A stretch of 37,612 nt of DNA from positions 1 to 37,612 of IMG/VR virus record IMGVR_UViG_3300046812_000397, one strand, 5' to 3'. The notes under the pieces were generated by a model. The model was given only the letters and a program-made list of their open reading frames with translations, had not been told where the DNA came from and did no database searches. The position numbers were made by a program, and so were the translations under genes. The stretch is from a virus. Below, piece by piece: positions 23,305 through 35,765 of the stretch. Position 1 is the first letter of the stretch; every line of letters begins with the position of its first letter.

Positions 23305-23377
23305 AGGGGATTAGCCAGCGGATAGGCACCCGGTCTCCAAAACCGGGCAAATGGGAGTTCGACCCTCTCAGTCCCTG
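23305..23377 (+). tRNA. tRNA-Trp(CCA)
   Basis: First gene of the array. Anticodon loop CTCCAAA on a CCGGT/ACCGG stem; T arm GGGAG-TTCGACC-CTCTC; acceptor AGGGGAT/AGTCCCT with one weak pair. No encoded CCA. Confidence 0.88.
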
Positions 23378-23467
23378 CGACCGTCAGCCAAGGCGAGAGC
23401 CGAGGCAGGCGCATGTCACTGCGGCCGGCTCGCCGGTCATTGACATCTCCACAGCGTGAGCATCACA

Positions 23468-23490
23468 GGCAGGGACAGCCGATCCCTGCC
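23468..23490. other. Perfect 8-bp hairpin in tRNA spacer
   Basis: GGCAGGGA (23468-23475) pairs with 23483-23490 around a 7-nt loop. The 204-nt spacer 23378-23581 holds this hairpin and the tRNA-like element at 23502, and no ORF of merit. Confidence 0.4.
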
Positions 23491-23501
23491 GCAGATAGAC
23501 C

Positions 23502-23578
23502 GTGCCCAGGGGGTAGCCCAAGTGAGAGGCGGCCCGACAAGGGAGGAGATCCAGGCGGAAACCCTGGTCCCCTGGCAC
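23502..23578 (+). ncRNA. tRNA-like structured RNA, isotype unreadable
   Basis: Ends pair as GTGCC(C)AGGGG with CCCCTGGCAC (10 bp with one bulge). Inside are a D-arm-like GCC/GGC loop after GTA, a short CCC/GGG hairpin and a T-arm-like CCAGG-CGGAAAC-CCTGG. The T loop lacks TTC, so this is a decayed tRNA or another structured RNA. Confidence 0.35.
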
Positions 23579-23581
23579 TAC

Positions 23582-23654
23582 GGGGCCTTGGCGCAGCAGG
23601 TGGCGCAGCTCAATGGCATTGAGAAGGTCGCGGGTTCGACTCCCGCAGGCTCCA
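23582..23654 (+). tRNA. tRNA-Ala(GGC)
   Basis: Acceptor GGGGCCT/AGGCTCC, D arm GCGC/GCGC, anticodon loop ATGGCAT, T arm GCGGG-TTCGACT-CCCGC. Nearly identical in body to the Ala(CGC) gene at 23796, so one arose from the other. Confidence 0.88.
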
Positions 23655-23795
23655 CAGGACTGGCTGGACGGGCAGTGGCATGTCCCGAAGGCCAGGGCAA
23701 AGCGGGAATCAGGTTTCCAATCGTCTTCCCCCGCCCGCCAGCCCGGTCAGCCGCAGCCAAGCGGATTTTCCGGTCAGGTGAGTCGGCGTACTCCA

Positions 23796-23869
23796 GGGGC
23801 CTTGGCGCAGCTAGGTGGCGCAGCTCATTCGCACCGAGAAGGTCGCGGGTTCGATTCCCGCAGGCTCCA
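23796..23869 (+). tRNA. tRNA-Ala(CGC)
   Basis: Same acceptor, D arm and T arm as Ala(GGC). The anticodon loop reads TTCGCAC with one mismatch at the loop edge. It reads GCG. Confidence 0.85.
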
Positions 23870-23886
23870 CGTTTCACGTGAATCAT

Positions 23887-23964
23887 CGGGATGTGGCGCA
23901 GCTTGGCTAGCGCGCTACGTTCGGGACGTAGAGGTCGCGGGTTCGAGTCCCGCCATCCCGACCA
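23887..23964 (+). tRNA. tRNA-Pro(CGG)
   Basis: Acceptor CGGGATG/CATCCCG with encoded CCA. Anticodon arm CTACG-TTCGGGA-CGTAG; T arm GCGGG-TTCGAGT-CCCGC. Confidence 0.92.
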
Positions 23965-23972
23965 AGTGACAA

Positions 23973-24050
23973 CGGGCTGTAGCTCAGTACGGCGAGAGCA
24001 CCTGGCTGGGGGCCAGGGGGCCGCGAGTTCAAGTCTCGCCAGCCCGACCA
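23973..24050 (+). tRNA. tRNA-Pro(GGG)
   Basis: Acceptor CGGGCTG/CAGCCCG with encoded CCA. Anticodon arm CCTGG-CTGGGGG-CCAGG; T arm GCGAG-TTCAAGT-CTCGC. Confidence 0.92.
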
Positions 24051-24065
24051 GTACGACCAGTACGA

Positions 24066-24137
24066 CGGGGTGTAGCTCAGTGGCAGAGCGCCCGGCCTGG
24101 GACCGGGAAGTCGTGTGTCCGATTCGCACCATCCCGA
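24066..24137 (+). tRNA. tRNA-Pro(TGG), C33
   Basis: Acceptor CGGGGTG/CATCCCG, no CCA. Anticodon arm CCCGG-CCTGGGA-CCGGG has C at position 33 in place of U. T loop TCCGATT is also slightly unusual. Confidence 0.85.
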
Positions 24138-24209
24138 CGTGAGGACCGCGCAGGGTAGTACGCCGGACTAGCGCGCCGGCGGCTCGCGGTGGCAGAGAAA
24201 CCCTGGCAT

Positions 24210-24282
24210 GGCTCTCTAGCTGAGACGGATTAGCGCCTGGCTGAAAACTAGGAGAAGGCAGGCTCGATACCTGCGGGGGCCA
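24210..24282 (+). tRNA. tRNA-Phe(GAA)
   Basis: Acceptor GGCTCTC/GGGGGCC with G-T pairs. Anticodon arm CCTGG-CTGAAAA-CTAGG; T loop CTCGATA (C at 54). The 72-nt spacer before it (24138-24209) is unexplained. Confidence 0.85.
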
Positions 24283-24294
24283 CGTAGTAACAAT

Positions 24295-24367
24295 GCGGAT
24301 GAGTCCCAACTGGCCGGGTACCAGCCCTCCAAGCTGGTTGTTGCGGGTTCGACTCCCGTCATCCGCT
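24295..24367 (+). tRNA. tRNA-Gly(TCC), C33
   Basis: Acceptor GCGGATG/CATCCGC. Anticodon arm CCAGC-CCTCCAA-GCTGG with C33. T arm GCGGG-TTCGACT-CCCGT. Confidence 0.87.
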
Positions 24368-24372
24368 CCGGG

Positions 24373-24406
24373 GCACTGACCCAGGCTGAACCCCTGGGCG
24401 AAGTGC
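24373..24406 (+). other. Two-tier hairpin with an anticodon-arm-like tip
   Basis: GCACT/AGTGC (24373-24377 with 24402-24406) encloses CCCAGG/CCTGGG with the 7-nt loop CTGAACC. The tip looks like a GAA anticodon arm, but no D or T arm is present. It lies in the 109-nt spacer between Gly and Lys genes. Confidence 0.35.
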
Positions 24407-24476
24407 AAACGGCTGGCAGGCCGTGGCCAGGCAGGGTGGCGAGGCTGCCACCGGACCTCCCTGCACCGGCTGTCTC

Positions 24477-24548
24477 GCGCCGCTAGCTCAATGGCAGAGC
24501 GGCGGACTCTTAATCCGATGGTTCGGGGTTCGACTCCCTGGCGGCGCA
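24477..24548 (+). tRNA. tRNA-Lys(CTT)
   Basis: Acceptor GCGCCGC/GCGGCGC, anticodon loop CTCTTAA, T arm CGGGG-TTCGACT-CCCTG. Confidence 0.9.
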
Positions 24549-24552
24549 CAAG

Positions 24553-24626
24553 GGCCGAGTAGCCCAACTGGCAGAGGTCCCGCCCCAAAAGCGGGGATAG
24601 CGCGGGTTCGACTCCCGCCCCGGCCA
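24553..24626 (+). tRNA. tRNA with anticodon CAA (Leu by anticodon, isotype uncertain), C33
   Basis: Acceptor GGCCGAG/CCCGGCC, anticodon arm CCCGC-CCCAAAA-GCGGG, T arm GCGGG-TTCGACT-CCCGC. CAA would read UUG, but the variable region is short, unlike the long arm expected of tRNA-Leu. C33 and a poor D stem add doubt. Confidence 0.65.
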
Positions 24627-24656
24627 CCGGTACGTCAGGCGGACGTAAAGCGCCGA

Positions 24657-24734
24657 TGGGGTGTAGAGGACGTTGGCATACTCGCCGGGCTCTGAACCCG
24701 GAGTTCCCTGGTTCGATCCCAGGCACCTCAGCCA
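24657..24734 (+). tRNA. tRNA-Gln(CTG)
   Basis: Acceptor TGGGGTG/CACCTCA, discriminator G, encoded CCA. Anticodon arm CCGGG-CTCTGAA-CCCGG; T arm CCTGG-TTCGATC-CCAGG. Confidence 0.92.
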
Positions 24735-24736
24735 CG

Positions 24737-24752
24737 TTCCGGACGTCCGGAA
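24737..24752. repeat. 16-bp palindrome TTCCGGACGTCCGGAA, copy 3
   Basis: Perfect palindrome, flanked by GTTCC...GGAAC to 18 bp. It lies between tRNA-Gln and the broken tRNA-Thr. Other copies are at 8479, 14202 and 31967. Confidence 0.8.
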
Positions 24753-24757
24753 CATCT

Positions 24758-24776
24758 GCCCCGGTAGCTCAGTCGG
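24758..24776 (+). pseudogene. 5' fragment of a tRNA-Thr gene interrupted by the endonuclease gene
   Basis: These 19 bases are identical to the first 19 of tRNA-Thr(GGT) at 25697 (acceptor strand, D stem and D loop to GG). After that the match ends and the endonuclease C-terminus begins. A short match to the anticodon 3' strand/variable region (25233-25244) lies at the other end. Confidence 0.65.
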
Positions 24777-25200
24777 CAGGACGTCGGAAGTCAAGCAGCT
24801 CGTAATCCTTAGCCAGCCGGACACCGGATTCCTGGTTGTTCCGGGTGGGGTCGATCCTGAGCCACGCTTCTCTGGTACCGCAGGCATCCACAGGAACCAG
24901 ATAGACAGTCCTCAGCTCTGGGCAGTACACCCCGAACAGGTCCGCATCTCCGGAATAGTCCTTCATGCACCCGTTGGGCCGCCGCGTAGTCGAGCTACAT
25001 GTCTTGAATCGGACGGACCCGCCACGGAGCCTCCCGGTCTTGCACTGGACTCGCTTGAATCCTTCCGGGGTGTCGATAGCGAGGTCGTACCGGGAGTTCC
25101 CGCCGTAAGGCAGAAGTACTGTGTCGTACGTCTCCAGCAAGGCAGCCAGCACTCGTGCTTCGGTGCGGTTTCCTATTGCTACGGGGTGTTCCTGTGTCAC
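24769..25200 (-). CDS. PD-(D/E)XK homing-type endonuclease (group I intron endonuclease family, I-Ssp6803I-like)
   Basis: 143 residues from GTG 25200, the first start after an in-frame stop. The catalytic set is E14 in NRTEARVLAALLE, D39 in GGNSRYDLAID and Q52/K54 in FKRVQCKTG. This E...D...QxK arrangement matches, from memory, that described for I-Ssp6803I, a tRNA-intron homing enzyme. The C-terminal part (DADLFGVYCPELRTVYLVPV, then DFRRPAD) fits the same family. It is the only protein gene inside the tRNA array, on the opposite strand, with its stop inside the D-arm sequence of a broken tRNA-Thr. The DNA is less GC-rich than around it. It likely moves by cutting tRNA genes that lack the insertion. 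No intron core was recognised in the short flanks. Confidence 0.8.
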   Translation of the reverse strand: MTQEHPVAIGNRTEARVLAALLETYDTVLLPYGGNSRYDLAIDTPEGFKRVQCKTGRLRGGSVRFKTCSSTTRRPNGCMKDYSGDADLFGVYCPELRTVYLVPVDACGTREAWLRIDPTRNNQESGVRLAKDYELLDFRRPAD

Positions 25201-25244
25201 AGGTCAATCGTAATACACCTCCGACATAACATAGCGGAGGTCCC

Positions 25245-25320
25245 GCCCCTATAGCTCAGTCGGTAGAGCGGCCCCCTCGTAAGGGGCAGGTCCCCCGTTC
25301 GATCCGGGGTCGGGGCTCCA
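25245..25320 (+). tRNA. tRNA-Thr(CGT)
   Basis: Acceptor GCCCCTA/TCGGGGC with one mismatch, encoded CCA. Anticodon arm GCCCC-CTCGTAA-GGGGC; T arm CCCCG-TTCGATC-CGGGG. Confidence 0.9.
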
Positions 25321-25332
25321 AGTACGCTCCAT

Positions 25333-25418
25333 GTCCGGGTGGTGAAACCGGTATACACGCCAGCTTGAGGTGCTGGTGGCCCGTAAGGGTCGTGCGGGTT
25401 CAAGTCCCGCCTCGGACA
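25333..25418 (+). tRNA. tRNA-Leu(GAG)
   Basis: Class II tRNA with a long variable arm. Acceptor GTCCGGG/CTCGGAC, anticodon arm CCAGC-TTGAGGT-GCTGG, T arm GCGGG-TTCAAGT-CCCGC. Confidence 0.9.
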
Positions 25419-25423
25419 CTGAT

Positions 25424-25497
25424 GCCGCCGTAGCTCAGCAGGCCAGAGCGTCTGCCTTGTAAGCAGCGGGTCGCCGGTTCGACTCCGGCCGGCGGCT
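25424..25497 (+). tRNA. tRNA-Thr(TGT)
   Basis: Acceptor GCCGCCG/CGGCGGC, anticodon loop CTTGTAA on CTGC/GCAG, T arm GCCGG-TTCGACT-CCGGC. Confidence 0.9.
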
Positions 25498-25501
25498 CTG
25501 A

Positions 25502-25573
25502 TGGGCAGTGGGGTAAACGGCAGCCCGGCCGGTTTTGACCCGGCTAGTCGAGGTTCGAGCCCTCGCCGCCCAG
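25502..25573 (+). tRNA. tRNA-Gln(TTG)
   Basis: Acceptor TGGGCAG/CCGCCCA, anticodon arm GCCGG-TTTTGAC-CCGGC, T arm CGAGG-TTCGAGC-CCTCG. Confidence 0.9.
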
Positions 25574-25582
25574 CTCTATGTC

Positions 25583-25613
25583 GTCGGAGGCCCCAGACAA
25601 TCAACGGCCTCCG
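25583..25613. other. Perfect 8-bp stem-loop in tRNA spacer
   Basis: CGGAGGCC and GGCCTCCG pair around a loop of about 15 nt. The sequence after it (to ~25666) is relatively A/T-rich (GGAACTATAACCATT) and contains no gene that can be named. Confidence 0.4.
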
Positions 25614-25666
25614 CAGGTAACGGAACTATAACCATTGCCGGATCACCGTGGGTTCCGCACGGTCCG

Positions 25667-25690
25667 GCGACCTATAGCTCAGCAGGAGTA
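25667..25690 (+). pseudogene. Orphan 5' half of a tRNA gene
   Basis: An acceptor-like strand GGCGACCTA is followed by a TAGCTCAGCAGGAGTAC D-arm segment, and then the next tRNA begins at 25697. No anticodon or T arm exists, so this is a truncated tRNA. Confidence 0.45.
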
Positions 25691-25696
25691 CAACCC

Positions 25697-25770
25697 GCCC
25701 CGGTAGCTCAGTCGGTCAGAGCGCCTGCATGGTAAGCCGGAGGTCCCCCGTTCGATCCGGGGTCGGGGCT
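25697..25770 (+). tRNA. tRNA-Thr(GGT)
   Basis: Acceptor GCCCCGG/TCGGGGC, anticodon loop ATGGTAA on CCTGC/GCCGG, T arm CCCCG-TTCGATC-CGGGG. Its first 19 bases match the fragment at 24758. Confidence 0.9.
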
Positions 25771-25780
25771 CGCAGTACAC

Positions 25781-25856
25781 GCGGACGTAGCGCAGCCGGT
25801 AGCGCATCACCTTGCCAAGGTGGGGGTCGCGGGTTCGAACCCCGTCGTCCGCTCCA
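25781..25856 (+). tRNA. tRNA-Gly(GCC)
   Basis: Acceptor GCGGACG/CGTCCGC, encoded CCA, anticodon loop TTGCCAA, T arm GCGGG-TTCGAAC-CCCGT. The 89-nt spacer after it (25857-25945) has a GGCCCA/TGGGCC stem and nothing else clear. Confidence 0.92.
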
Positions 25857-25945
25857 GGATCACGGCCCAGAGAACTGGAGTGGGCCGGTTATGACTGAAC
25901 CTCATGCGCGATTCGTCTCCGATGACCGAACGCCGTGATCCGCAC

Positions 25946-26029
25946 GCCCCGCTGGCGAAGCAGGCAGACGCGCACGATTCAGGATCGTGTGTCCGTGAGG
26001 ACGGGAGGGTTCAAATCCCTCGTGGGGCA
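25946..26029 (+). tRNA. tRNA-Leu(CAG)
   Basis: Class II. Acceptor GCCCCGC/GTGGGGC, anticodon arm CACGA-TTCAGGA-TCGTG, long variable arm, T loop TTCAAAT. Confidence 0.92.
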
Positions 26030-26041
26030 CGCAGTAACGAT

Positions 26042-26132
26042 GGAGGGCTGGCCCGGAACTGGAGCACTGGGACCGCACTGCTAATGCGACGGCCTGGCAA
26101 CGGGTCCGCGAGTTCGATTCTCGCGCCTTCCG
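26042..26132 (+). tRNA. tRNA-Ser(GCT)
   Basis: Class II. Acceptor GGAGGGC/GCCTTCC, anticodon loop CTGCTAA on CGCA/TGCG, long variable arm, T arm GCGAG-TTCGATT-CTCGC. Confidence 0.9.
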
Positions 26133-26138
26133 CGTAAT

Positions 26139-26223
26139 GGGGAGTTCGCCTAGTGGCCTATGGCGCACGCCTGGAAAGCGTGTTGGGGTAACACCCTCGG
26201 GGGTTCGACTCCCTCACTCTCCG
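26139..26223 (+). tRNA. tRNA-Ser(GGA)
   Basis: Class II. Acceptor GGGGAGT/ACTCTCC, anticodon arm CACGC-CTGGAAA-GCGTG, variable arm TTGGGGTAACACCCTC. Confidence 0.92.
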
Positions 26224-26242
26224 CGCAGTACAGCACGACCCT

Positions 26243-26333
26243 GGAGGGGTAAGCCGAGCGAGGACTACCGGCTGCCGTCCCGAAAACGGTTAGGGCACAG
26301 CGTCCCGTGTGGGTTCGAGCCCCACCTCCTCCG
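26243..26333 (+). tRNA. tRNA-Ser(CGA), C33
   Basis: Class II. Acceptor GGAGGGG/CTCCTCC, anticodon arm GCCGT-CCCGAAA-ACGGT with C33, T arm GTGGG-TTCGAGC-CCCAC. Confidence 0.88.
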
Positions 26334-26346
26334 CGCAGTAAGCCAT

Positions 26347-26424
26347 GGGGCAGCAGCGTAGCCCGGTTCTCGCAGCTCCCTGATAAGGAAAAGGTCAGTG
26401 GTTCAAATCCACTCTGCCCCACCA
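26347..26424 (+). tRNA. tRNA-Ile(GAT)
   Basis: Acceptor GGGGCAG/CTGCCCC, encoded CCA, anticodon loop CTGATAA on a weak 3-bp stem, T arm AGTGG-TTCAAAT-CCACT. Its CCA is followed by 1 nt and then tRNA-Met. Confidence 0.85.
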
Positions 26425-26425
26425 T

Positions 26426-26499
26426 GGCGATGTAGCTCAGCCAGGCAGAGCAGCCCCCTCATAAGGGGAAGGCCGGTGGTTCGAGTCCACCCACCGCTA
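26426..26499 (+). tRNA. tRNA with CAT anticodon (elongator Met, or Ile if C34 is lysidylated)
   Basis: Acceptor GGCGATG/CACCGCT, D arm GCTC/GAGC, anticodon loop CTCATAA on CCCC/GGGG, T arm GGTGG-TTCGAGT-CCACC. It lacks the GGG/CCC stem of initiators. Confidence 0.85.
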
Positions 26500-26509
26500 C
26501 GGCACCCAC

Positions 26510-26582
26510 GGGCCGGTAACTCACTGGTAAGAGTGCCTGCCTTATAAGCAGAGAGCAGCGGGATCAATACCCGCCCGGCCTA
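26510..26582 (+). tRNA. tRNA-Ile(TAT)
   Basis: Acceptor GGGCCGG/CCGGCCT, anticodon loop CTTATAA on CTGC/GCAG. T loop ATCAATA lacks the usual T54. An UAU anticodon reads AUA without lysidine. Confidence 0.82.
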
Positions 26583-26631
26583 CGAGGAGGTCACCAGCAT
26601 GTACGCGAAACGTGCCCTGCGAATAACCTCC

Positions 26632-26706
26632 GGGGCCGGTAGCTCAGCGGAACGAGCGGCGGGCCTTTAACCCGCGCGTCCTGGGTTCGATCCCCAGTCG
26701 GCCTAC
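26632..26706 (+). tRNA. tRNA-Lys(TTT), C33
   Basis: Acceptor GGGCCGG/TCGGCCT, anticodon arm GCGGG-CCTTTAA-CCCGC with C33, T arm CTGGG-TTCGATC-CCCAG. Confidence 0.88.
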
Positions 26707-26730
26707 GCTGGGTAGTGTTATAGTAACTGA

Positions 26731-26804
26731 GCGCCCGTAGCTCAGCCGGACAGAGCAACCGCCTTCTATGCGGAGGGTCGTGGGTTCGAATCCTGCCGGG
26801 CGCG
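26731..26804 (+). tRNA. tRNA-Arg(TCT)
   Basis: Acceptor GCGCCCG/CGGGCGC, anticodon loop CTTCTAT on CCGC/GCGG, T loop TTCGAAT. The A/T-rich spacer before it (TGTTATAGTAACTG) could hold an internal promoter. Confidence 0.9.
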
Positions 26805-26815
26805 CGTGCTCACAC

Positions 26816-26888
26816 GGCCCGGTCATCTAGTGGCCGAGGATGCCAGCCCCTCAAGCTGGTCACGCCGGTTCGAATCCGGTTCGGGCTA
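26816..26888 (+). tRNA. tRNA-Glu(CTC), C33
   Basis: Acceptor GGCCCGG/TCGGGCT and TCATCTAGTGG D arm are typical of tRNA-Glu. Anticodon arm CCAGC-CCCTCAA-GCTGG has C33. Confidence 0.88.
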
Positions 26889-26897
26889 CGATCACCT

Positions 26898-26976
26898 CTC
26901 GGTGGGGGTGCTGTTGGCTAAGGTGCCGCCGTCCCTTCAAGGCGGTTCGACGCCGGTTCGATTCCGGTCACCGAGA
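26898..26976 (+). tRNA. tRNA-Glu(TTC), C33
   Basis: Acceptor CTCGGTG/CACCGAG, anticodon arm CCGTC-CCTTCAA-GGCGG with C33, T arm GCCGG-TTCGATT-CCGGT. The D region is a few nt longer than normal. Confidence 0.82.
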
Positions 26977-27003
26977 CGAGCATCAGCTAGGCTGGTGTGT
27001 ACG

Positions 27004-27079
27004 TGCGGAGGGGGTTCGGTCACCCGGCCAGGGCTCATAACCCAGGCAACGCGAGTTCAAATCTCAGCCTCCGCTACCA
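27004..27079 (+). tRNA. tRNA-Met(CAT), initiator-like
   Basis: The anticodon stem has the GGG/CCC run around CTCATAA that marks bacterial initiators. The 3' end reads CTCCGCT-A-CCA, so positions 1 and 72 are T and T (unpaired), another initiator feature. The T stem then needs one bulged A. The encoded CCA abuts the next tRNA with no spacer. An alternative reading is G1-C72 with two T-stem mismatches. Confidence 0.78.
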
Positions 27080-27151
27080 TCCCCCATAGCTCAATGGCAG
27101 CAGCGCCCGGCCGTTAACCGGTGGATCTTGGTTCGAGTCCAGGTGGGGGAG
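27080..27151 (+). tRNA. tRNA-Asn(GTT), C33
   Basis: Acceptor TCCCCCA/TGGGGGA, anticodon loop CCGTTAA with C33, T arm CTTGG-TTCGAGT-CCAGG. Confidence 0.88.
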
Positions 27152-27156
27152 CGAGC

Positions 27157-27216
27157 GATGCGGAAGTGCTGATACAGCGTCCGGACAGCGCGGGGGTTCG
27201 CACCCCGCCCGCATCG
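27157..27216 (+). pseudogene. Shortened tRNA-like gene
   Basis: Acceptor GATGCGG/CCGCATC is perfect and the T loop TTCGCAC is plausible, but only 28 nt lie between acceptor and T stem. They form a GCTG/CAGC hairpin and an open TCCGGAC loop. A D arm or anticodon arm is missing, so it is a truncated or highly reduced tRNA. Confidence 0.45.
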
Positions 27217-27222
27217 CATCAT

Positions 27223-27297
27223 GGAGCTGTAGAGCAGCATGGAGTGCTCGCCACCCTGTCAAGGTGGAGGTCGCGGGTTCAAATCCCGTCAGCCCCG
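27223..27297 (+). tRNA. tRNA-Asp(GTC)
   Basis: Acceptor GGAGCTG/CAGCCCC with one mismatch, D arm GAGC/GCTC, anticodon arm CCACC-CTGTCAA-GGTGG, T arm GCGGG-TTCAAAT-CCCGT. Confidence 0.9.
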
Positions 27298-27552
27298 CTC
27301 GGCCGGAAGCGAAGCCTGCTAGCGAGGCGGACCTTCCCGCGCCAGGGATAGAGACCTGGCTCTGGCGGCGGACGCGCCGCGCGGACCCGGAACCGACCGG
27401 GTTGGCTGGCCCAGTTCAGGCAGTCCCTCCTGGACGTCCGGGCAGGTTCCCGCACGCTGCGCGCGGCACGGGAAAACCGCCAGGCGAATCCGTCATACCG
27501 TCCGCCGGCGGGTCTCCCCGTCGCGTGGCACGCGGTACCGGATGGGACACAC
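27298..27552. other. 255-nt gap in the tRNA array
   Basis: No tRNA or convincing ORF. It contains short hairpins such as GCCAGG...CCTGGC (27344-27363) and CCCGG-AACCGA-CCGGG (27386-27401). It may hold processing sites or unknown RNAs. Confidence 0.4.
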
Positions 27553-27624
27553 GGGCGGCTGGCGCAGCGGGAGCGCGCCTGCCTGACACGCAGGAGGCCA
27601 CTGGTTCGATCCCAGTGCCGCCCA
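27553..27624 (+). tRNA. tRNA-Val(GAC)
   Basis: Acceptor GGGCGGC/GCCGCCC, anticodon arm CCTGC-CTGACAC-GCAGG, T arm ACTGG-TTCGATC-CCAGT. Confidence 0.92.
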
Positions 27625-27635
27625 CGCAGGACAAT

Positions 27636-27708
27636 GCGCTTGTAGCTCAATGGATAGAGCACCTGACTACGGATCAGGCGGCTGGGGGTTCGAGTCCCTT
27701 CGAGCGCG
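27636..27708 (+). tRNA. tRNA-Arg(ACG)
   Basis: Acceptor GCGCTTG/CGAGCGC, anticodon arm CCTGA-CTACGGA-TCAGG, T loop TTCGAGT. A34 would need deamination to inosine to read CGC and CGA. Confidence 0.92.
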
Positions 27709-27711
27709 CGG

Positions 27712-27750
27712 TGCCGCCGCCACCCGGACGCGAAACGGGTGGCGGCGGCA
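27712..27750. other. Perfect 15-bp stem-loop between tRNA genes
   Basis: 27712-27726 pairs with 27736-27750 without mismatch around the 9-nt loop GACGCGAAA. No U tract follows. A processing hairpin, attenuator or terminator is possible. Confidence 0.6.
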
Positions 27751-27757
27751 AACCCAG

Positions 27758-27831
27758 GGGCGATTAGCTCAGCGGCAGAGCGGCTGGTCCACACCCAGTG
27801 ACACGCGCAGGTTCGATCCCTGCACCGCCCA
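27758..27831 (+). tRNA. tRNA-Val(CAC), C33
   Basis: Acceptor GGGCGAT/ACCGCCC, anticodon arm GCTGG-TCCACAC-CCAGT with C33, T arm GCAGG-TTCGATC-CCTGC. Confidence 0.86.
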
Positions 27832-27835
27832 CGGA

Positions 27836-27912
27836 CCCAGGACGGCGATGGAGATGAGTCGCATCGGCAAGCCGGCCAGGTTCCCGTGCCGTCTCACGGG
27901 TGCCGTCCTGGG
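27836..27912 (+). ncRNA. Structured RNA candidate closed by an 11-bp stem
   Basis: CCCAGGACGGC (27836-27846) pairs perfectly with 27902-27912. Inside are GATG/CATC and CCCGTG-CCGTCT-CACGGG hairpins. The size (77 nt) and arms resemble a tRNA outline, but no TTC loop or anticodon loop is readable. It fills the spacer between Val and His tRNAs. Confidence 0.4.
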
Positions 27913-27922
27913 ACTGCCCCAT

Positions 27923-27996
27923 GGTGGCCGTGGCTGAAAGGCTATGGCGCCGGGTTGTGAGCCCGGAGTATGCCGGTTCGAGTCCGGTCGGTCACC
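27923..27996 (+). tRNA. tRNA-His(GTG)
   Basis: The extra G at -1 faces C73, the identity mark of tRNA-His. Acceptor GTGGCCG/CGGTCAC, anticodon arm CCGGG-TTGTGAG-CCCGG, T arm GCCGG-TTCGAGT-CCGGT. Confidence 0.93.
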
Positions 27997-28029
27997 CTCG
28001 CTGGCGACGAGCGTAAATCAGTCGCGCAC

Positions 28030-28111
28030 GGCGGAATGACCAGAGATGGCATTGGAGCGGTCTGTAAAACCGTAGTCACTGACACGGCAGGTTCGAGCCC
28101 TGCTTCCGCCA
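28030..28111 (+). tRNA. tRNA-Tyr(GTA)
   Basis: Class II. Acceptor GGCGGAA/TTCCGCC, anticodon arm GCGGT-CTGTAAA-ACCGT, T arm GCAGG-TTCGAGC-CCTGC. The A/T-rich spacer after it (28112-28182) holds a CGAACC/GGTTCG hairpin. Confidence 0.9.
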
Positions 28112-28182
28112 CTTACCTTGTTCTAGTCATATAGGTCCGCGAACCCCCCGGTTCGTGATGGCCGTTATCTGATTGTTATCAA

Positions 28183-28257
28183 GACCCCATAGCTCAGACA
28201 GGAAAGAGCGGGCGCCTCCGGAGCGTCAGGTCGCAGGTTCGAGTCCTGCTGGGGCCG
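28183..28257 (+). tRNA. tRNA-Arg(CCG)
   Basis: Acceptor GACCCCA/TGGGGCC with one mismatch, anticodon arm GGCGC-CTCCGGA-GCGTC, T arm GCAGG-TTCGAGT-CCTGC. Confidence 0.9.
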
Positions 28258-28299
28258 CTGGGCGAGGTCACAGGTCATGCTGTCCGAGCCCGCCCCTGT

Positions 28300-28373
28300 C
28301 GCGGGGTGACCGAGAGGCTAGGCACGCGCCTGCAAAGCGCGTCACACGGGTTCGAGTCCCGTCTCCGCGTCCA
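28300..28373 (+). tRNA. tRNA-Cys(GCA)
   Basis: Acceptor CGCGGGG/CTCCGCG, encoded CCA, anticodon arm CGCGC-CTGCAAA-GCGCG, T arm ACGGG-TTCGAGT-CCCGT. The CCA abuts the next tRNA. Confidence 0.93.
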
Positions 28374-28447
28374 GACCCAGTAGCTCAGCCGGACAGAGCG
28401 GGCGCCTCCTAAGCGCCAGGTCGCGGGTTCGAATCCCCCCTGGGCCG
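28374..28447 (+). tRNA. tRNA-Arg(CCT)
   Basis: Last tRNA of the array. Acceptor GACCCAG/CTGGGCC, anticodon arm GGCGC-CTCCTAA-GCGCC. The same loop CTCCTAA appears inside the third Y-like RNA downstream. Confidence 0.9.
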
Positions 28448-28474
28448 CCCCTCCCCCGATGCTCACGCCGTGGA

Positions 28475-28480
28475 ATACAT
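28475..28480 (+). promoter_or_regulatory. Possible -10 box (ATACAT) for the Y-like RNA cluster
   Basis: ATACAT lies 5 nt before the first base of the closing stem of the first Y-like RNA, in a short A/T-rich patch after the last tRNA. No -35 was recognised. Confidence 0.35.
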
Positions 28481-28485
28481 CTTCT

Positions 28486-28608
28486 GGTCCTGGCGGGCCG
28501 GAAGGGGATCGGTTATCAACAGTTCGATTCTGCTAACCCCCGGCGAAACCCGGAGGTTCCCGCACTGGCTGCGGGAGTCCGGTGCCCGATCACATGCCCG
28601 CCAGGACC
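28486..28608 (+). ncRNA. Y-like RNA 1, with a T-arm-like hairpin
   Basis: A perfect 13-bp closing stem (28486-28498 with 28596-28608) is followed by CGGA, a second stem GATCGG/CCGATC (28507-28512 with 28586-28591), and TTATCA. The element GCGGGCCGGA...CGGTTATCA is shared by all three copies and recalls the Ro60-binding strand of animal Y RNAs (GGUCCGA...GUUAUC). In the head are CAG-TTCGATT-CTG, which copies a tRNA T loop, and CCCGC-ACTGGCT-GCGGG (28559-28575). It is 5' to the Ro60 gene. Bacterial YrlA RNAs are known to be tRNA mimics bound by Rsr/Ro60. Confidence 0.75.
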
Positions 28609-28616
28609 GGCAGACC

Positions 28617-28754
28617 CCTGGCGGGCCGGACTGGAGTCGGTTATCACCCTGCGGAGGTCGAGGTCGCGAGGTGGAACTCCTCGCCGGGGCACAGCCCCGT
28701 AGCTCAGCACTAGAGCGCGTATTCAACTCGGTTCCTGCACACATGCCCGCCAGG
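28617..28754 (+). ncRNA. Y-like RNA 2, with a tRNA 5' half (D arm)
   Basis: A perfect 10-bp closing stem (28617-28626 with 28745-28754), CGGA, then an 8-bp wobble-containing stem GGAGTCGG/TCGGTTCC (28633-28640 with 28728-28735), then TTATCA. The head has GCGAG/CTCGC and GGGGC-ACA-GCCCC hairpins and GCCCCGTAGCTCAGC...GAGC, which copies the acceptor strand and D arm of the tRNAs upstream. It starts 8 nt after copy 1. Confidence 0.72.
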
Positions 28755-28770
28755 CACAACTGGATAAGGC

Positions 28771-28859
28771 CCCCTGCGGGCCGGACGGCGATCGGTTATC
28801 ACCTGACTCCTAATCAGGCGCGATAGCGCTCCGGTAGCCACTAAGCACGCCCGCAGGGG
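28771..28859 (+). ncRNA. Y-like RNA 3, with an Arg(CCU)-type anticodon arm
   Basis: An 11-bp closing stem (28771-28781 with 28849-28859), CGGA, a second stem GGCGATCGG/CCGGTAGCC with one G-A mismatch (28787-28795 with 28831-28839), then TTATCA. The head contains CCTGA-CTCCTAA-TCAGG (28802-28818), a textbook anticodon arm with U33 and anticodon CCU, and a small CGC-GATA-GCG hairpin. It ends about 30 nt before the Ro60 start codon. Confidence 0.75.
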
Positions 28860-28890
28860 CCTTGTCCCGAGGAAGACTGGAGCACCCGCC

Positions 28891-30552
28891 ATGTCCGATG
28901 TCCTGAGCACCGTCCGCACCCGTAACGCGGTCACCCCGCAGGTGATGCAGGCTGACCCGCGTCAGTCGCGCAACAACGCCGGCGGCTTCACGTTCACCAT
29001 CGACTCGGGAGCCCGGATCTACCGGTTCCTGACCATCGGCACGGCAGGCGGCACCTTCTACGTCAACGAGAAGAACCTCACCCGCGACAACGCGGACGTC
29101 GTGCTGGACATGGCCCGGCGTAACCCGGCCGAGCTGGCCCGGATGGCGGCCGAGATCTCCGAGGCGGGCCGCGCCCCGTCCAACAACCCGGCGCTGCTGG
29201 CCGTGGCCGCCGCCATGTCCCTAGGCGGAACCGAGGAGGGCCGCCGGGCCGCAGCGGACATGCTGCCACGGGTCGCGCGCACCGGCTCGCACCTGCTGAC
29301 GGCTGCCCGCTATGTCGAGCAGTTCCGTGGCTGGGGCCGTATCGCCCGGCGCGCGTTCGCGTCCTGGTACCTGGACTACGAGGCCGGGGACCTGGCGTAC
29401 CAGCTCATCAAGTACCGCCACCGTGGCGGGGACACCGAGGGCTGGTCGCACCGTGACGTGCTGCGGTCGGCGCACTCCACCAAGGGCGCTGACCCGGACC
29501 ACGCGGCGCTGTTCGACCTGGTGTGCGGCCGGGGCGTCTCGGACCGGGCGCTGCCGAAGTGGGCGGTCGCCTTCCGCCGTGCCCAGGAGATCGGCCGCAG
29601 CACCGGCTCCCCGGTGGCGAAGTACGTCTCGCTGATCGAGGACTACCCCGGCCTGCCGTGGGAGGCCCTGCCGGACGAGGCGACGGGCAAGGCCGAGGTG
29701 TGGCGTGCGCTGATCGAGGCCGGCCTGCCGGTCACGGCGCTGCTGCGGAACCTGCCGAAGCTGACGCGCCTGGGCGTCCTGGCCCCGCTGTCGTCCCACC
29801 TGCGGATGGTGACGGAGCGGCTGGGCGACGGCGAGCTGCTGGTGCGGGGCCGGGTCCACCCGGTCGCGGTCCTGACCGCGCTGCGCACCTACGCCTCGGG
29901 TCACTCCATCTCGGGCTCGTCCCGGTGGGTTCCGGTCCCGCAGGTCGTGGACGTGCTGGGCGGCGCGTTCTACCTCTCGTTCGGCTCGGTCGAGCCGGCG
30001 GGCAAGCGGACGCTGCTGTGCACCGACGTGTCCGGGTCCATGACCTGGCCGATCAACCGGCAGCACTTCCGCTACCTGCCGCCCGGCTTCGACGGGTACC
30101 CGTTCACGGCCGGCGAGATCGCGGGCGCCATGGCCATGGCCATCGCCCGGTTCGAGCCGGACTGGGCGGTCATGGGGTTCGCGGACGGCATCCGCCCGCT
30201 GCCCGTCACGCCGTCGATGCGGCTGGACGAGGTTCTGCGCATCATGCGGGTCTCCTCGTTCGGCAGCACGGACTGCTCGGCCCCGATCGTGTGGGCTCGG
30301 CAGAACCGGGTCGACGTCGACACGTTCGCCGTGATCACCGACAACGAGACCTACGCGGGACGCGTCCACCCGCACGAGGCCCTGCGCGACTACCGGCAGG
30401 CCACGGGCATCGACGCGCGGCTCCAGGTCGTCGCGGTGGTCCCCACCGAGTTCAGCATCGCTGACCCGGCCGACCCCCGGCAGCTCGATGTCAGCGGCTT
30501 CGACAGCGCTGCGCCCGTGCTGCTAGCGAACCACTCGGCCGGCCGCGTCTGA
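28891..30552 (+). CDS. Ro60/Rsr homologue (TROVE domain plus von Willebrand A domain)
   Basis: 553 residues, close to the length of bacterial Rsr. ATG 28891 with GGAG ~10 nt upstream. The N-terminal ~330 residues show the TROVE ring of helical repeats: NNAGGFTFTIDSGARIYRFL, TIGTAGGTFYVNEKNLT, then helices ending HRDVLRSAH. The C-terminal vWA domain has the MIDAS motif TDVSGSMTWP (D379, S381, S383) and a second metal loop at TDNETYAG. Ro60 proteins hold the ends of misfolded RNA in the ring and bind Y RNAs on the outside. In Deinococcus, Rsr with Y RNA tethers the exonuclease PNPase (known work). Here the gene lies just 3' of three Y-like RNAs and a 39-tRNA array, so RNA or tRNA quality control or decay during infection is the likely role. 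Confidence 0.93.
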   Translation: MSDVLSTVRTRNAVTPQVMQADPRQSRNNAGGFTFTIDSGARIYRFLTIGTAGGTFYVNEKNLTRDNADVVLDMARRNPAELARMAAEISEAGRAPSNNPALLAVAAAMSLGGTEEGRRAAADMLPRVARTGSHLLTAARYVEQFRGWGRIARRAFASWYLDYEAGDLAYQLIKYRHRGGDTEGWSHRDVLRSAHSTKGADPDHAALFDLVCGRGVSDRALPKWAVAFRRAQEIGRSTGSPVAKYVSLIEDYPGLPWEALPDEATGKAEVWRALIEAGLPVTALLRNLPKLTRLGVLAPLSSHLRMVTERLGDGELLVRGRVHPVAVLTALRTYASGHSISGSSRWVPVPQVVDVLGGAFYLSFGSVEPAGKRTLLCTDVSGSMTWPINRQHFRYLPPGFDGYPFTAGEIAGAMAMAIARFEPDWAVMGFADGIRPLPVTPSMRLDEVLRIMRVSSFGSTDCSAPIVWARQNRVDVDTFAVITDNETYAGRVHPHEALRDYRQATGIDARLQVVAVVPTEFSIADPADPRQLDVSGFDSAAPVLLANHSAGRV

Positions 30553-30567
30553 CCGGGTACGGTATCA

Positions 30568-30638
30568 GCAGGGACGGTCCTCAATAAGGCGTAGCTCCCC
30601 CTGCGGGAGTTCCAGCCCCCAACCGGGACCGTCCCTGC
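30568..30638 (+). ncRNA. Structured RNA or terminator directly after the Ro60 gene
   Basis: GCAGGGACGGTCC (30568-30580) pairs perfectly with 30626-30638 (13 bp). The enclosed 45 nt contain CTCCC/GGGAG. A TACGGT box at 30559-30564 would place a start near the stem base, which favours a separate small RNA. A rho-independent terminator without U tract is the alternative. It lacks the GGTTATCA core of the Y-like RNAs. Confidence 0.5.
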
Positions 30639-30813: not shown

Positions 30814-31950
30814 ATGACACTGCCAGCCACCGCGTTCCCCCTGTCCGTCTCCGGCGCCCGGCTCCTCGGCGCGGACGGCAGCCAGGTCAGCCTCGGCCTC
30901 GGCGTCAACTGGGGCGGCGCCCAGCAGGACGAGCTGCTGCCCTACGGCCTGGACAGGCTGCACCGCAGCAAGATCATCGACCGCATCACCGGGTGGGGGA
31001 TGAGCCACGTCCGGTTCCCGTTCGCGCTCGGCACGATCGTCAGCAACAACGGCGCCCTCAAGACCGGCATCGCCAAGGCGTCCCGGCTGAGCGCCAATCC
31101 CGATCTGCAAGGGCTCACCCCGTGGGGCGTCTACCAGCAGCTCGTGGATGACATGACGGCGGCCGGGCTGTACGTCATCCTCAACCAGCATCTTTTGTAC
31201 CAGGGGTGGTGCTGCTCCCAGTCCGACTGCAACGGGCTGTGGTATAACGACAACTGGCCGTCGAGCACGTTCAGCAACACCTGGTTCATGATCACGGACC
31301 GGTTCGCGTCCAACCCCCTGGTCGGCTACGACCTGCACAACGAGCCGAGGCCCGCCACGGTCGGCGGCTCGCTGCTCACCCCCACCTGGGGCGACGGGGT
31401 GTGGGGGACGGACTTCCGCCGGATGTACGACTGGCACGCGGGGCAGATCCGCCAGCACGACCCGGACGGCCTGATCTTCTGCGAGGGCCTTGGCTACGGG
31501 GCCGACCTGACCGGCGCCGGGGCGCACCCGGTCACCGGGTCCAACATCGTCTACTCGGTGCACGACTACCCCTGGTACCACCAGAACGCGGACGGCTCCC
31601 AGCAGGACCAGGCCGGGTACGACGCGGCCAACGACCGGAACTGGGGCTACCTGCTCGCCCAGGGCAAGGCGCCGGTCTGGGTCGGGGAGTTCGGCTCCAA
31701 TACCGACGCGAGCACCGCCGCCCAGGGCTCCGGCTGGCTGCCCCACTTCCTGGACTACTACGCCGCCGCCGAGCCGTGCGGGGCCTGCTGGTGGGAGCTG
31801 TCCGCCACCGCCGTGGCCGGCACCGAGCCGACAACGAACAAGGCCAAGATGGCGGCCGGCGGCCGGGAGGGCTTCGGCCTGATGTCGGGCCAGGACTGGC
31901 TCGGCTCCCAGTCGGACATGCTCGCCCGGCTCAGCGCGGTGATCTCGTGA
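30814..31950 (+). CDS. Glycoside hydrolase family 5 (cellulase-like) enzyme
   Basis: 378 residues. VSLGLGVNWGGAQ opens a TIM-barrel strand, and WGMSHVRFPFALGT carries the conserved Arg. YDLHNEPRP contains the acid/base Glu (E177) and APVWVGEFGSN the nucleophile Glu (E292), the defining GH5 pair. VYSVHDYPWYH supplies the His/Tyr strand between them, and CWWELSA the late Trp. There is no signal peptide, so the product is either released by lysis or virion-borne. Substrates of GH5 are beta-linked glucans or mannans; a role in cutting host surface polysaccharide is inferred. The next gene overlaps it by 4 nt (GTGA). Confidence 0.88.
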   Translation: MTLPATAFPLSVSGARLLGADGSQVSLGLGVNWGGAQQDELLPYGLDRLHRSKIIDRITGWGMSHVRFPFALGTIVSNNGALKTGIAKASRLSANPDLQGLTPWGVYQQLVDDMTAAGLYVILNQHLLYQGWCCSQSDCNGLWYNDNWPSSTFSNTWFMITDRFASNPLVGYDLHNEPRPATVGGSLLTPTWGDGVWGTDFRRMYDWHAGQIRQHDPDGLIFCEGLGYGADLTGAGAHPVTGSNIVYSVHDYPWYHQNADGSQQDQAGYDAANDRNWGYLLAQGKAPVWVGEFGSNTDASTAAQGSGWLPHFLDYYAAAEPCGACWWELSATAVAGTEPTTNKAKMAAGGREGFGLMSGQDWLGSQSDMLARLSAVIS

Positions 31951-32873: not shown

Positions 32874-33158
32874 CTACTCCCGCCTCTCCCAGTACCCGGT
32901 GCGCTGGTCGACGTAGACCACCGGGTGGTGGCTCCGGTAGGTGCAGTAGTACCGGCGGACGTGCTCGAACTCCTCGTACCGCATCGCGAACCCGCAGCAG
33001 GACAGCATGTCCGGCTCCGGTCCCGGCCCCGGTTCGAGGACCCGGACGCGGAGGTGCTGGGCTTCCAGCGGGATCGCGGCCTTGTCCGCGCCCCGCACGG
33101 TGATGGTGTCGAGTTCGCCGTCGCGCTCGTCGTAGTAGGTGACCCGGACGGCGCTCAC
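32874..33158 (-). CDS. Hypothetical protein
   Basis: 94 residues: MSAVRVTYYDERDGELDTIT, then LRVRVLEPGPGPEPDMLSCC and a Tyr/Arg/His-rich end (RRYYCTYRSHHPVVYVDQRT). Mixed beta character. It overlaps the glycosyltransferase stop by 4 nt, so it is the last gene of the leftward set 34685-32874. Not recognised. Confidence 0.6.
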   Translation of the reverse strand: MSAVRVTYYDERDGELDTITVRGADKAAIPLEAQHLRVRVLEPGPGPEPDMLSCCGFAMRYEEFEHVRRYYCTYRSHHPVVYVDQRTGYWERRE

Positions 33159-34177
33159 CGGGCGGGGAACATCGACTCGTAGGCCCGCTCCCAGCGCAGC
33201 CAGTGGTCATCGACCAGGTGCTCAGCGGCCATGGCCGCCGCCGCCTGCCCCATTTTCTCCCGCAGCCCGTCGTCCCGCGCCAGCTCGGACAGGTACCGGA
33301 GCCATTCGTGCTCCTCCCTGACCAGGAACCCGTTCACGCCGTGGGTGATCACGCCGGCGTAGGCCGGGCAGTGGCTCGCCACGGTGGGGATGCCGCGCGC
33401 CCCGTACTCGATCACCTTGATGGCGCTCTTGGACCTGCTGAACGGGGTGGGCCACAGCGGGGCCACGCCGATGTCGAAGTCGATCGAGCCGTAGAACTTC
33501 TCCGGGTACTCGTTGACCTGGACCCACGGCCGGAAGAACACCCGGTCCGCCGGGGCCTTGATCGTCTCCCGGTAGTCGGTGGCGTTGAGCTGGAAGTCCC
33601 AGCCGGGGAACCGCTTGAGGAACCGGCGGACCGGGCCGGCCACCTGGCCGATATCGACGCCGTGGCTGCCGCCGCCCATCCAGCCGACGCGGGGCCGGTC
33701 CCGGCGCGGCCTCGGCAGGTCGAGCACCCAGCCGGGCACGCAGTTCGGGAGCACCGTCACGTTCGGGTTGAACTCCCGCATCACCTCGGCCAGCGGCTCC
33801 GTGCTCACCGTCACCAGGTCGGCCACCTCGGCCGCGTGGCCCACCGCGTCCCTGATCTCCGGCTGGCGGTACAGGTTGTAGGCGTTCCAGTTCTCCGGCG
33901 TCACGTGGAACACGTCGTCGTCCAGCTCGTAGACCAGCCGGGACGTGGGAGTCCTGGCCCGGCGCCAGATCTCCAGCCCCTCGTGCTTGTTCCACCGCTG
34001 TGCCACGATGACGTCGTAGCCCCGCAGGTCGGCCAGCGTGACGGTGAGCGGGTGGTGGGTGTCCGAGGAGTCCGCGTAGCGCACTTCGTGGCCGTGGTCC
34101 CGCAGCGCGTGCATCGGGAGCTGCATCCGGTAGTAGGCGCAGCCCGACCCGCCGTCGTGGCCGGCGAAGATCCGCAT
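33155..34177 (-). CDS. GT-B glycosyltransferase (group 1/GT4-like)
   Basis: 340 residues from ATG 34177 (MRIFAGHDGGSGCAYYRMQL), overlapping the upstream stop. The N-terminal domain has RLVYELDDDVFHVTPENW and DLVTVSTEPLAEVM. The C-terminal domain has RPRVGWMGGGSHGVDI and VIEYGARGIPTVASHCPAY, the donor-site 'E..a.G.PvVas' signature of GT4-type enzymes. It should use a nucleotide sugar. Targets could be phage DNA bases, virion proteins or host polymers. It is the second of four glycosyltransferases in the window. Confidence 0.83.
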   Translation of the reverse strand: MRIFAGHDGGSGCAYYRMQLPMHALRDHGHEVRYADSSDTHHPLTVTLADLRGYDVIVAQRWNKHEGLEIWRRARTPTSRLVYELDDDVFHVTPENWNAYNLYRQPEIRDAVGHAAEVADLVTVSTEPLAEVMREFNPNVTVLPNCVPGWVLDLPRPRRDRPRVGWMGGGSHGVDIGQVAGPVRRFLKRFPGWDFQLNATDYRETIKAPADRVFFRPWVQVNEYPEKFYGSIDFDIGVAPLWPTPFSRSKSAIKVIEYGARGIPTVASHCPAYAGVITHGVNGFLVREEHEWLRYLSELARDDGLREKMGQAAAAMAAEHLVDDHWLRWERAYESMFPAR

Positions 34178-34353
34178 CACTCGCTCCATTCGTGCGGCTC
34201 GGCTACCAGGTGGTAGTCGCTGAACCGGTACCAGGCCACGGCGAGGAACAGCCACCAGACCCGGACGCTGCGGACCTGCTTCCCCCACCGGTTCACGTGG
34301 CGGCCGGGCTTCCAGTTGATGCCGTCCCGGTCGATGCAGACGGTGACGGTCAT
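34177..34353 (-). CDS. Small Trp-rich protein
   Basis: 58 residues: MTVTVCIDRDGINWKPGRHV, then VWWLFLAVAWYRFSDYHLVA. A short hydrophobic aromatic core may associate with membrane or with the glycosyltransferase encoded next to it. Coupled on both sides by overlapping start/stop codons. Confidence 0.55.
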   Translation of the reverse strand: MTVTVCIDRDGINWKPGRHVNRWGKQVRSVRVWWLFLAVAWYRFSDYHLVAEPHEWSE

Positions 34354-35676: not shown

Positions 35677-35765
35677 GGCTGCCCCCAGGCGATGCCGAGC
35701 GGCAGGATGACGCCGAACAGCACGATGACCCACAGCACGGCCACGGCGACCGCCCACCTGCTCAC
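35673..35765 (-). CDS. 30-residue single-span membrane protein
   Basis: MSRWAVAVAVLWVIVLFGVI then LPLGIAWGQP. One transmembrane helix and almost nothing else. Coupled on both sides by GTGA/TGA overlaps. It may be a small membrane accessory, possibly in lysis control; no motif allows more. Confidence 0.55.
   Translation of the reverse strand: MSRWAVAVAVLWVIVLFGVILPLGIAWGQP

What the first reader, a model, noticed from the sequence alone, without database searches (positions are those of the whole stretch)
28486..30552. Phage-borne Ro60-Y RNA locus: three tandem Y-like RNAs followed by a full-length TROVE/vWA protein
Seen: three consecutive RNAs, each closed by a 10-13 bp stem, each with GCGGGCCGGA, a second stem ending CGG, then TTATCA. 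They end ~30 nt before a 553-residue protein with TROVE and MIDAS motifs. Known: Ro60/Rsr binds Y RNAs, bacterial Y RNAs (YrlA) mimic tRNAs, and from memory some mycobacteriophages carry Ro60 genes. Inferred: the phage makes its own Ro60 particle with several Y RNAs, next to a huge tRNA array. It could edit, protect or degrade tRNA or host RNA, possibly by recruiting host PNPase. Three different Y RNAs for one Ro60 would allow alternative partners.
Basis: partly seen in the sequence, partly recalled or inferred. Interest (0 to 1): 0.92.

Follow-up and report, generated by a model that had tools for sequence, protein, structure and literature searches.

The report
Phage Ro60 with three Y RNAs
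A bacterial virus carries its own version of the human lupus autoantigen Ro60 next to three small Y RNAs, each of which seems to display a different piece of a transfer RNA (T arm, tRNA core, anticodon arm); the RNA-protein pair is of a known kind, but the anticodon-arm copies look undescribed.

Summary
Three RNAs (28486-28608, 28617-28754, 28766-28863) share an exact 5' motif (GCGGGCCGGA-N7-CGGTTATCA, nowhere else on the strand) and close on 10-13 bp stems. A full-length Ro60/Rsr gene follows (28891-30552; Pfam 7e-50, PDB Rsr 4e-108). The same two-helix Y-RNA site lies upstream of Ro60 in over 100 phage and actinobacterial loci, often in arrays (1-8 copies). Own 5'/3' arms pair far better than swapped arms (0 of 20,000 permutations). 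Ro60 with Y RNAs in phages is a known kind (2014 report, from memory). What looks new is the effector part: copy 2 is a circularly permuted tRNA core (weak Rfam YrlA hit), copy 1 opens with a T-arm-like hairpin, copy 3 carries a perfect anticodon stem-loop (CCUGA-CUCCUAA-UCAGG, Arg CCU). Across the family, real tRNA anticodon loops occur right after UUAYC in 29 of 172 non-redundant RNAs (shuffles: mean 5.3, maximum 16), with covarying stems; a second set pointed the same way, less strongly. Most likely these are adaptors that bring tRNA-handling enzymes to Ro60. Expression, binding and function were not tested.

The parts
28486..28608 (+). Y RNA copy 1; 13-bp closing stem; 5' Ro site 28493-28518; T-arm-like hairpin CAG-UUCGAUU-CUG at 28520-28532
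   Evidence: motif, fold -68.4 kcal/mol with the homology-derived helices in the MFE, z -4.1; T-arm-first Y RNAs in other phages
28617..28754 (+). Y RNA copy 2; circularly permuted tRNA core: anticodon-like arm ACC-CUGCGGA-GGU 28646-28658, T-arm-like 28666-28684 (loop UGGAACU, not canonical), closed acceptor-like stem 28685-28699, D-arm 28702-28716
   Evidence: Rfam YrlA RF02553 28659-28719, 32.2 bits, E 3.2e-5, below its gathering score of 69; Ro-site helices
28766..28863 (+). Y RNA copy 3; anticodon-stem-loop mimic CCUGA-CUCCUAA-UCAGG 28802-28818 (anticodon CCU, Arg), then GCGC-GAUA-GCGC
   Evidence: relatives L059 (CUUCUAA loop) and L061 (CCAGA/UCUGG stem, compensatory change)
28891..30552 (+). 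Ro60/Rsr protein, 553 aa; TROVE ring + vWA with MIDAS
   Evidence: Pfam, phrog_850, PDB 2nvo 3.7e-108 and 1yvp 4e-89; residues aligned to Xenopus K170, R174, H187 conserved
23305..28449 (+). tRNA array, 36 ARAGORN tRNA genes, ending 36 nt before Y RNA copy 1

Best explanation
The locus makes a phage Ro60 ribonucleoprotein with three alternative Y RNAs. Each Y RNA docks on the outer surface of the Ro60 ring through its basal site (helix 1, the CGGA/CACAU internal loop, helix 2, UUAUC). Its free end presents a piece of tRNA: a T arm (copy 1), a permuted tRNA core (copy 2), or an anticodon arm (copy 3). These ends work as interchangeable adaptors that hold tRNA-handling or RNA-decay enzymes (host PNPase, tRNA-modifying enzymes, tRNA nucleases) next to the Ro60 ring, so the particle can act on tRNA or other structured RNA during infection. 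Shown by sequence and statistics: the Ro60 gene, the Y RNA basal site, arrays, and the tRNA-part mimicry. Inferred from known Ro60 biology: binding, tethering, and the choice of partner.
For: Ro60 family identity with the known Y-binding residues kept (their role is from memory). The Y basal site is conserved across phages and actinobacteria and supported by swapped-arm controls for helix 1 (20.9 vs 13.4; 0 of 20,000 permutations reach it) and helix 2 (15.2 vs 9.4; permutation maximum 11.3). A motif scan of IMG/VR that does not use Ro60: of decidable hits, 52 of 62 with a matching 3' arm have Ro60 within 3 kb downstream, against 15 of 50 without one, P = 7e-9. Same scan near Ro60 against elsewhere in the same loci at score >= 28: 274 vs 2. 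One related phage Y RNA scores above gathering for the nematode sRNA family RF01656, a stem-bulge RNA family (Y RNA relatives). Anticodon-loop mimicry. Tethering of PNPase by a Y RNA and modification of YrlA by tRNA enzymes are reported (reviewed in PMC8394870).
Against: No expression or binding data. Copy 2 hits YrlA well below gathering, and its T loop (UGGAACU) and D loop lack the canonical UUCRA and GG; its minimum-energy fold (-63.0) differs from the homology structure (-56.1). Class assignments by hairpin search are approximate: 71 of 173 RNAs fit no tRNA-part class. The tRNA likeness could be ancestry rather than function.
Confidence: 0.6

Rival explanations
1. The tRNA-part Y RNAs are decoys: they occupy host anticodon nucleases or other tRNA-cutting defence enzymes, complementing the nuclease-resistant tRNAs of the array.
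For: Anticodon loops match real isoacceptor loops with U33 and R37; the locus sits beside a tRNA array, as in L059 and L061. YrlA was suggested as a competitive inhibitor of an anticodon nuclease (PMC7790460), and phage tRNAs are proposed to counter such nucleases (PMC10264068).
Against: The same anticodon-arm Y RNAs occur in loci from bacterial genomes (prophages not excluded), so they are not specific to phage infection. No nuclease partner is known. A decoy would not need Ro60.
Confidence: 0.17
2. The tRNA likeness is a by-product: Y RNAs near tRNA arrays repeatedly capture tRNA fragments by recombination, and only the Ro60-binding arms are under selection (gate function only).
For: Effector parts differ strongly among copies while the arms are alike; many short Y RNAs have only a small loop; loops match many different isoacceptors.
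Against: Anticodon stems covary across the family: own flanks pair 2.38 of 3 against 1.48 when swapped, maximum of 20,000 permutations 2.00. Copy 3 has relatives with a compensatory stem change and a loop change within the Arg AGR box.
Confidence: 0.15
3. The repeats are not Y RNAs but processing or termination elements of the tRNA-Ro60 transcript.
For: They lie between the tRNA array and the gene and are strong hairpins.
Against: No T-tract terminator found there; the Y site specifically tracks Ro60 across collections.
Confidence: 0.03

Closest known systems
Bacterial Rsr-Y RNA (Deinococcus radiodurans RYPER; Salmonella rsr-yrlBA-rtcBA)
   Same: Ro60 orthologue with Y RNAs encoded next to it; basal Ro-binding stem; one RNA with a tRNA-like module
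   Different: Phage-borne, beside a tRNA array, three Y RNAs each with a different tRNA part; no rtcBA seen among the adjacent genes (by eye)
Y RNAs reported near Ro60 in bacteria and phages, at least one tRNA-like per species (Chen et al. 2014 RNA 20:1715; from memory of the abstract, full text not held)
   Same: Same genomic arrangement and tRNA-like domain
   Different: The published module as summarised in PMC8394870 covers D, T and acceptor arms; here an anticodon arm is added or stands alone
Rfam YrlA RF02553
   Same: T-arm, closed acceptor-like stem and D-arm of copy 2 align to model positions 24-84
   Different: Below gathering; the 23 model positions before the matched module leave little room for an anticodon hairpin (inference)
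Mycobacteriophage C1 (ET08/Bxz1-like) Ro-like protein
   Same: Ro60 orthologue, 44-45% identical, with 3 Y RNA candidates upstream found here
   Different: Y RNAs not annotated in the record; different effector parts

Membership tests
Ro60/Rsr protein family | TROVE domain plus Ro60 vWA domain over the whole length | tested here: met
   Pfam PF25045 7.3e-50, PF05731 5.2e-30; residues 15-551 align to Rsr 2nvo
Ro60/Rsr protein family | MIDAS and Y-RNA-contact residues (K170, R174, H187 of Xenopus Ro60; roles from memory) | tested here: met
   K174, R178, H195; DVSGS 379, T in FGSTDCS, D in ITDNE
Y RNA | 5' and 3' ends pair, with conserved Ro-binding site (helix, internal loop, second helix, UUAUC) | tested here: met
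   all three copies; family-wide swap test
Y RNA | gene adjacent to Ro60 | tested here: met
   third RNA ends 27 nt upstream of the start codon; association across IMG/VR
Y RNA | bound by Ro60 | not testable with these tools
   needs pull-down or binding assay
YrlA (Rfam RF02553) | covariance model score above gathering (69 bits) | tested here: not met
   copy 2: 32.2 bits, E 3.2e-5; copies 1 and 3: no match. Phage and actinobacterial relatives also gave no gathering-level YrlA hit
YrlA (Rfam RF02553) | canonical T loop (UUCRA) and GG in the D loop | tested here: not met
   copy 2 T loop UGGAACU, D loop AGCACUA (sequence)
RYPER (Rsr-Y RNA-PNPase) | physical complex with PNPase | not testable with these tools
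   no protein interaction data

The most novel reading that the evidence does not exclude
Phages and actinobacteria run a modular 'tRNA-parts' Ro60 particle: one ring protein with up to eight Y RNAs, each showing a separate tRNA element (anticodon arm of a given isoacceptor, T arm, or whole permuted core), so the particle can capture different tRNA-acting enzymes, including defence nucleases, and the anticodon loops set which ones.
Probability: 0.2. Interest if true: 0.85.

Novelty: new variant of a known kind. Interest (0 to 1): 0.55.

Why it matters
What bacterial and phage Ro60 particles do is still open. If Y RNAs carry true anticodon arms of specific tRNAs, that points directly to tRNA-acting enzymes as partners and gives a simple test: which protein binds copy 3 and not a loop mutant. 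It would also tie phage Ro60 to the present discussion of phage tRNA arrays as counter-defence.

Tried and rejected
Rfam at gathering level found only tRNAs in the window. A coding explanation of 28470-28826 was set aside: GC by codon position is 0.64/0.62/0.68 in that ORF against 0.69/0.52/0.95 in Ro60. The first scan with TYAYC allowed many false hits and mis-called copies 2 and 3; it was replaced by TTAYC with both helices scored together. Spacing between anticodon loop and T loop matched the tRNA value (15 nt) in only 4 of the 11 RNAs scored and was 14 in 5, so exact spacing is suggestive only. Replication in a second set held for hairpin and U33 counts, but catalogue matches were few (4 vs maximum 2 in shuffles) and the sequence-only count (7) only equalled the shuffle maximum; some U33 hits there are T arms. 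The shuffles keep base composition only. Searches for papers on YrlA with anticodon or on phage Ro60 Y RNAs found no description of anticodon arms, but the primary papers (PMC4201824, PMC6047535, PMC6281776) are not held. No structure prediction was run, since solved orthologues exist. RNA model building was not used. One DNA search failed on length and was not repeated.

Full report
What is there. The window is a 37.6-kb virus record from IMG/VR, 69.5% G+C. An array of 36 tRNA genes by ARAGORN runs from 23305 to 28449. It is followed by three structured RNAs and a 553-aa gene. The protein is Ro60/Rsr: Pfam vWA_Ro60 7e-50 and TROVE 5e-30, PHROG 850 'RNA-binding protein', and Deinococcus Rsr 2nvo 3.7e-108 and Xenopus Ro60 1yvp 4e-89 in the PDB. 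The MIDAS residues and the residues aligned to Xenopus K170, R174 and H187 are kept (that these three are needed for Y RNA binding is from memory). 340 phage records in INPHARED encode a relative, all below 60% identity.

The RNAs. GCGGGCCGGA-N7-CGGTTATCA occurs exactly three times on the strand, at 28493, 28621 and 28776. Each copy has helix 1 (13, 10 and 11 bp), an internal loop (5' CGGA.., 3' ..CACAU or GCAC), helix 2 ending in CGG, and UUAUC. For copy 1 the minimum-energy fold contains this homology-derived architecture; for copy 3 it is within 2 kcal/mol; for copy 2 it is 7 kcal/mol above the minimum.

The family. Ro60 loci were collected from viral contigs (56), bacterial genomes (67, nearly all actinobacterial) and annotated phages (14). 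With both helices scored, 283 Y RNA candidates lie upstream of Ro60 in 123 loci; at score 28 there are 274 near Ro60 and 2 elsewhere in the same loci. Copies per locus: 1-4 in bacterial loci, 1-6 in viral loci, up to 8 in a further set. Pairing is specific to each RNA: helix 1 scores 20.9 with its own 3' side and 13.4 with that of another RNA, helix 2 15.2 against 9.4, with no permutation of 20,000 reaching the observed mean. Starting from the motif alone, Ro60 lies within 3 kb downstream for 52 of 62 decidable hits with a 3' arm and 15 of 50 without (P 7e-9). One Y RNA of L057 scores above gathering for the nematode sRNA family RF01656; it is a stem-bulge RNA family as I know it, and stem-bulge RNAs are Y RNA homologues (PMC4726728 abstract). 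So the identification as Y RNAs is firm on sequence grounds.

The effector parts. Copy 2 matches Rfam YrlA positions 24-84 (32.2 bits, E 3.2e-5, below gathering): T-arm, closed acceptor-like stem, D-arm. Its T loop is UGGAACU and its D loop lacks GG, so the canonical 19-56 contact may be swapped to C-G (inference from one sequence). Many relatives have canonical versions, e.g. L005, L007, L015. In these the segment before the T arm reads as the 3' half of a tRNA from the anticodon loop onward, so the effector is a circularly permuted tRNA with the Ro60 stem inserted next to the anticodon arm. Copy 1 starts with CAG-UUCGAUU-CUG, a T-arm-like hairpin directly after UUAUC, as in L004, L006, L044, L055 and L061. 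Copy 3 carries CCUGA-CUCCUAA-UCAGG: a 5-bp stem, 7-nt loop, U33, A37, anticodon CCU. Relatives have CUUCUAA (UCU) in L059 and CCAGA/UCUGG with CUCCUAA in L061.

Is the anticodon arm real? In 172 non-redundant RNAs, 7-nt hairpins right after UUAYC number 82 (shuffle mean 51, maximum 70), those with U33 50 (10.7, maximum 21), and exact matches to tRNA loops found in the same DNA 18 (0.2, maximum 3). With the catalogue rebuilt after masking the Y RNAs and loops found by sequence only: 29 (5.3, maximum 16), and few at later offsets (4, 4, 1, 1, 0). The flanking 3-nt stems pair 2.38 of 3 against 1.48 when swapped (maximum of 20,000 permutations 2.00), with nine different stem sequences. A second set of 60 RNAs not used to form the idea gave the same direction: 36 hairpins (maximum in shuffles 27), U33 18 (11), catalogue loops 4 (2); the sequence-only count of 7 merely equals the shuffle maximum. 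Loci from bacterial genomes have such arms too, so the feature is not phage-specific.

How it may work. Known: in Deinococcus a Y RNA tethers Rsr to PNPase and shifts it to structured RNA; YrlA is modified by DusA and TruB (reviewed in PMC8394870). The RNA-repair-operon paper suggested that YrlA's tRNA-like domain may inhibit an anticodon nuclease (PMC7790460), and phage tRNAs are proposed to evade such nucleases (PMC10264068). I infer that the three Y RNAs are alternative adaptors on one Ro60 ring, bringing tRNA-handling enzymes to it; a decoy role is the main rival.

Novelty. Ro60 with Y RNAs in phages is a known kind. By my memory of its abstract, Chen et al. 2014 reported Y RNAs near Ro60 in more than 250 bacterial and phage species, at least one per species tRNA-like. 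I could not read that paper. The anticodon-arm and T-arm Y RNAs, and arrays of up to eight, were not found described in the held literature, so I call this a new variant, with the reservation that the primary papers were not available.

Noticed in passing
window 30571-30636: Just after the Ro60 stop codon, a 12-bp-closed structured element (AGGGACGGUCCU / GGGACCGUCCCU region, with an inner stem-loop), -39.2 kcal/mol, z -4.7; it lacks the Y motif and may be a terminator or a fourth small RNA.
   Followed up: partly
L061:536-887 (G002:C1:152493-152844): A 190-kb viral contig related by its Ro60 carries a bacterial-type RNase P RNA (RF00010, 261 bits) inside a large tRNA array upstream of its Y RNAs and Ro60.
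   Followed up: partly
L148 (Y RNAs at 703-2188): A viral contig locus with about seven or eight Y RNA candidates before Ro60, among the longest arrays seen.
   Followed up: no
L131:2297-2470 (phage ET08 gp219): A short annotated CDS overlaps predicted Y RNAs upstream of Ro60 and is probably spurious; Y RNAs are not annotated in any of the 14 phage records read.
   Followed up: no
L057:2425-2496: A phage Y RNA scores above gathering for the nematode sRNA family RF01656 (41 vs 38 bits).
   Followed up: no
window 33155-34288 and 35053-35757 (- strand): Two proteins (they look like glycosyltransferases) that are 62% and 61% identical to ones in L059, another Y RNA/Ro60 phage contig, so the two phages share more than the Ro60 locus.
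   Followed up: no
window 30814-31950: A 378-aa ORF downstream of Ro60 that reads like a cellulase-type glycoside hydrolase (by eye; not searched), unusual beside a tRNA/Ro60 block.
   Followed up: no
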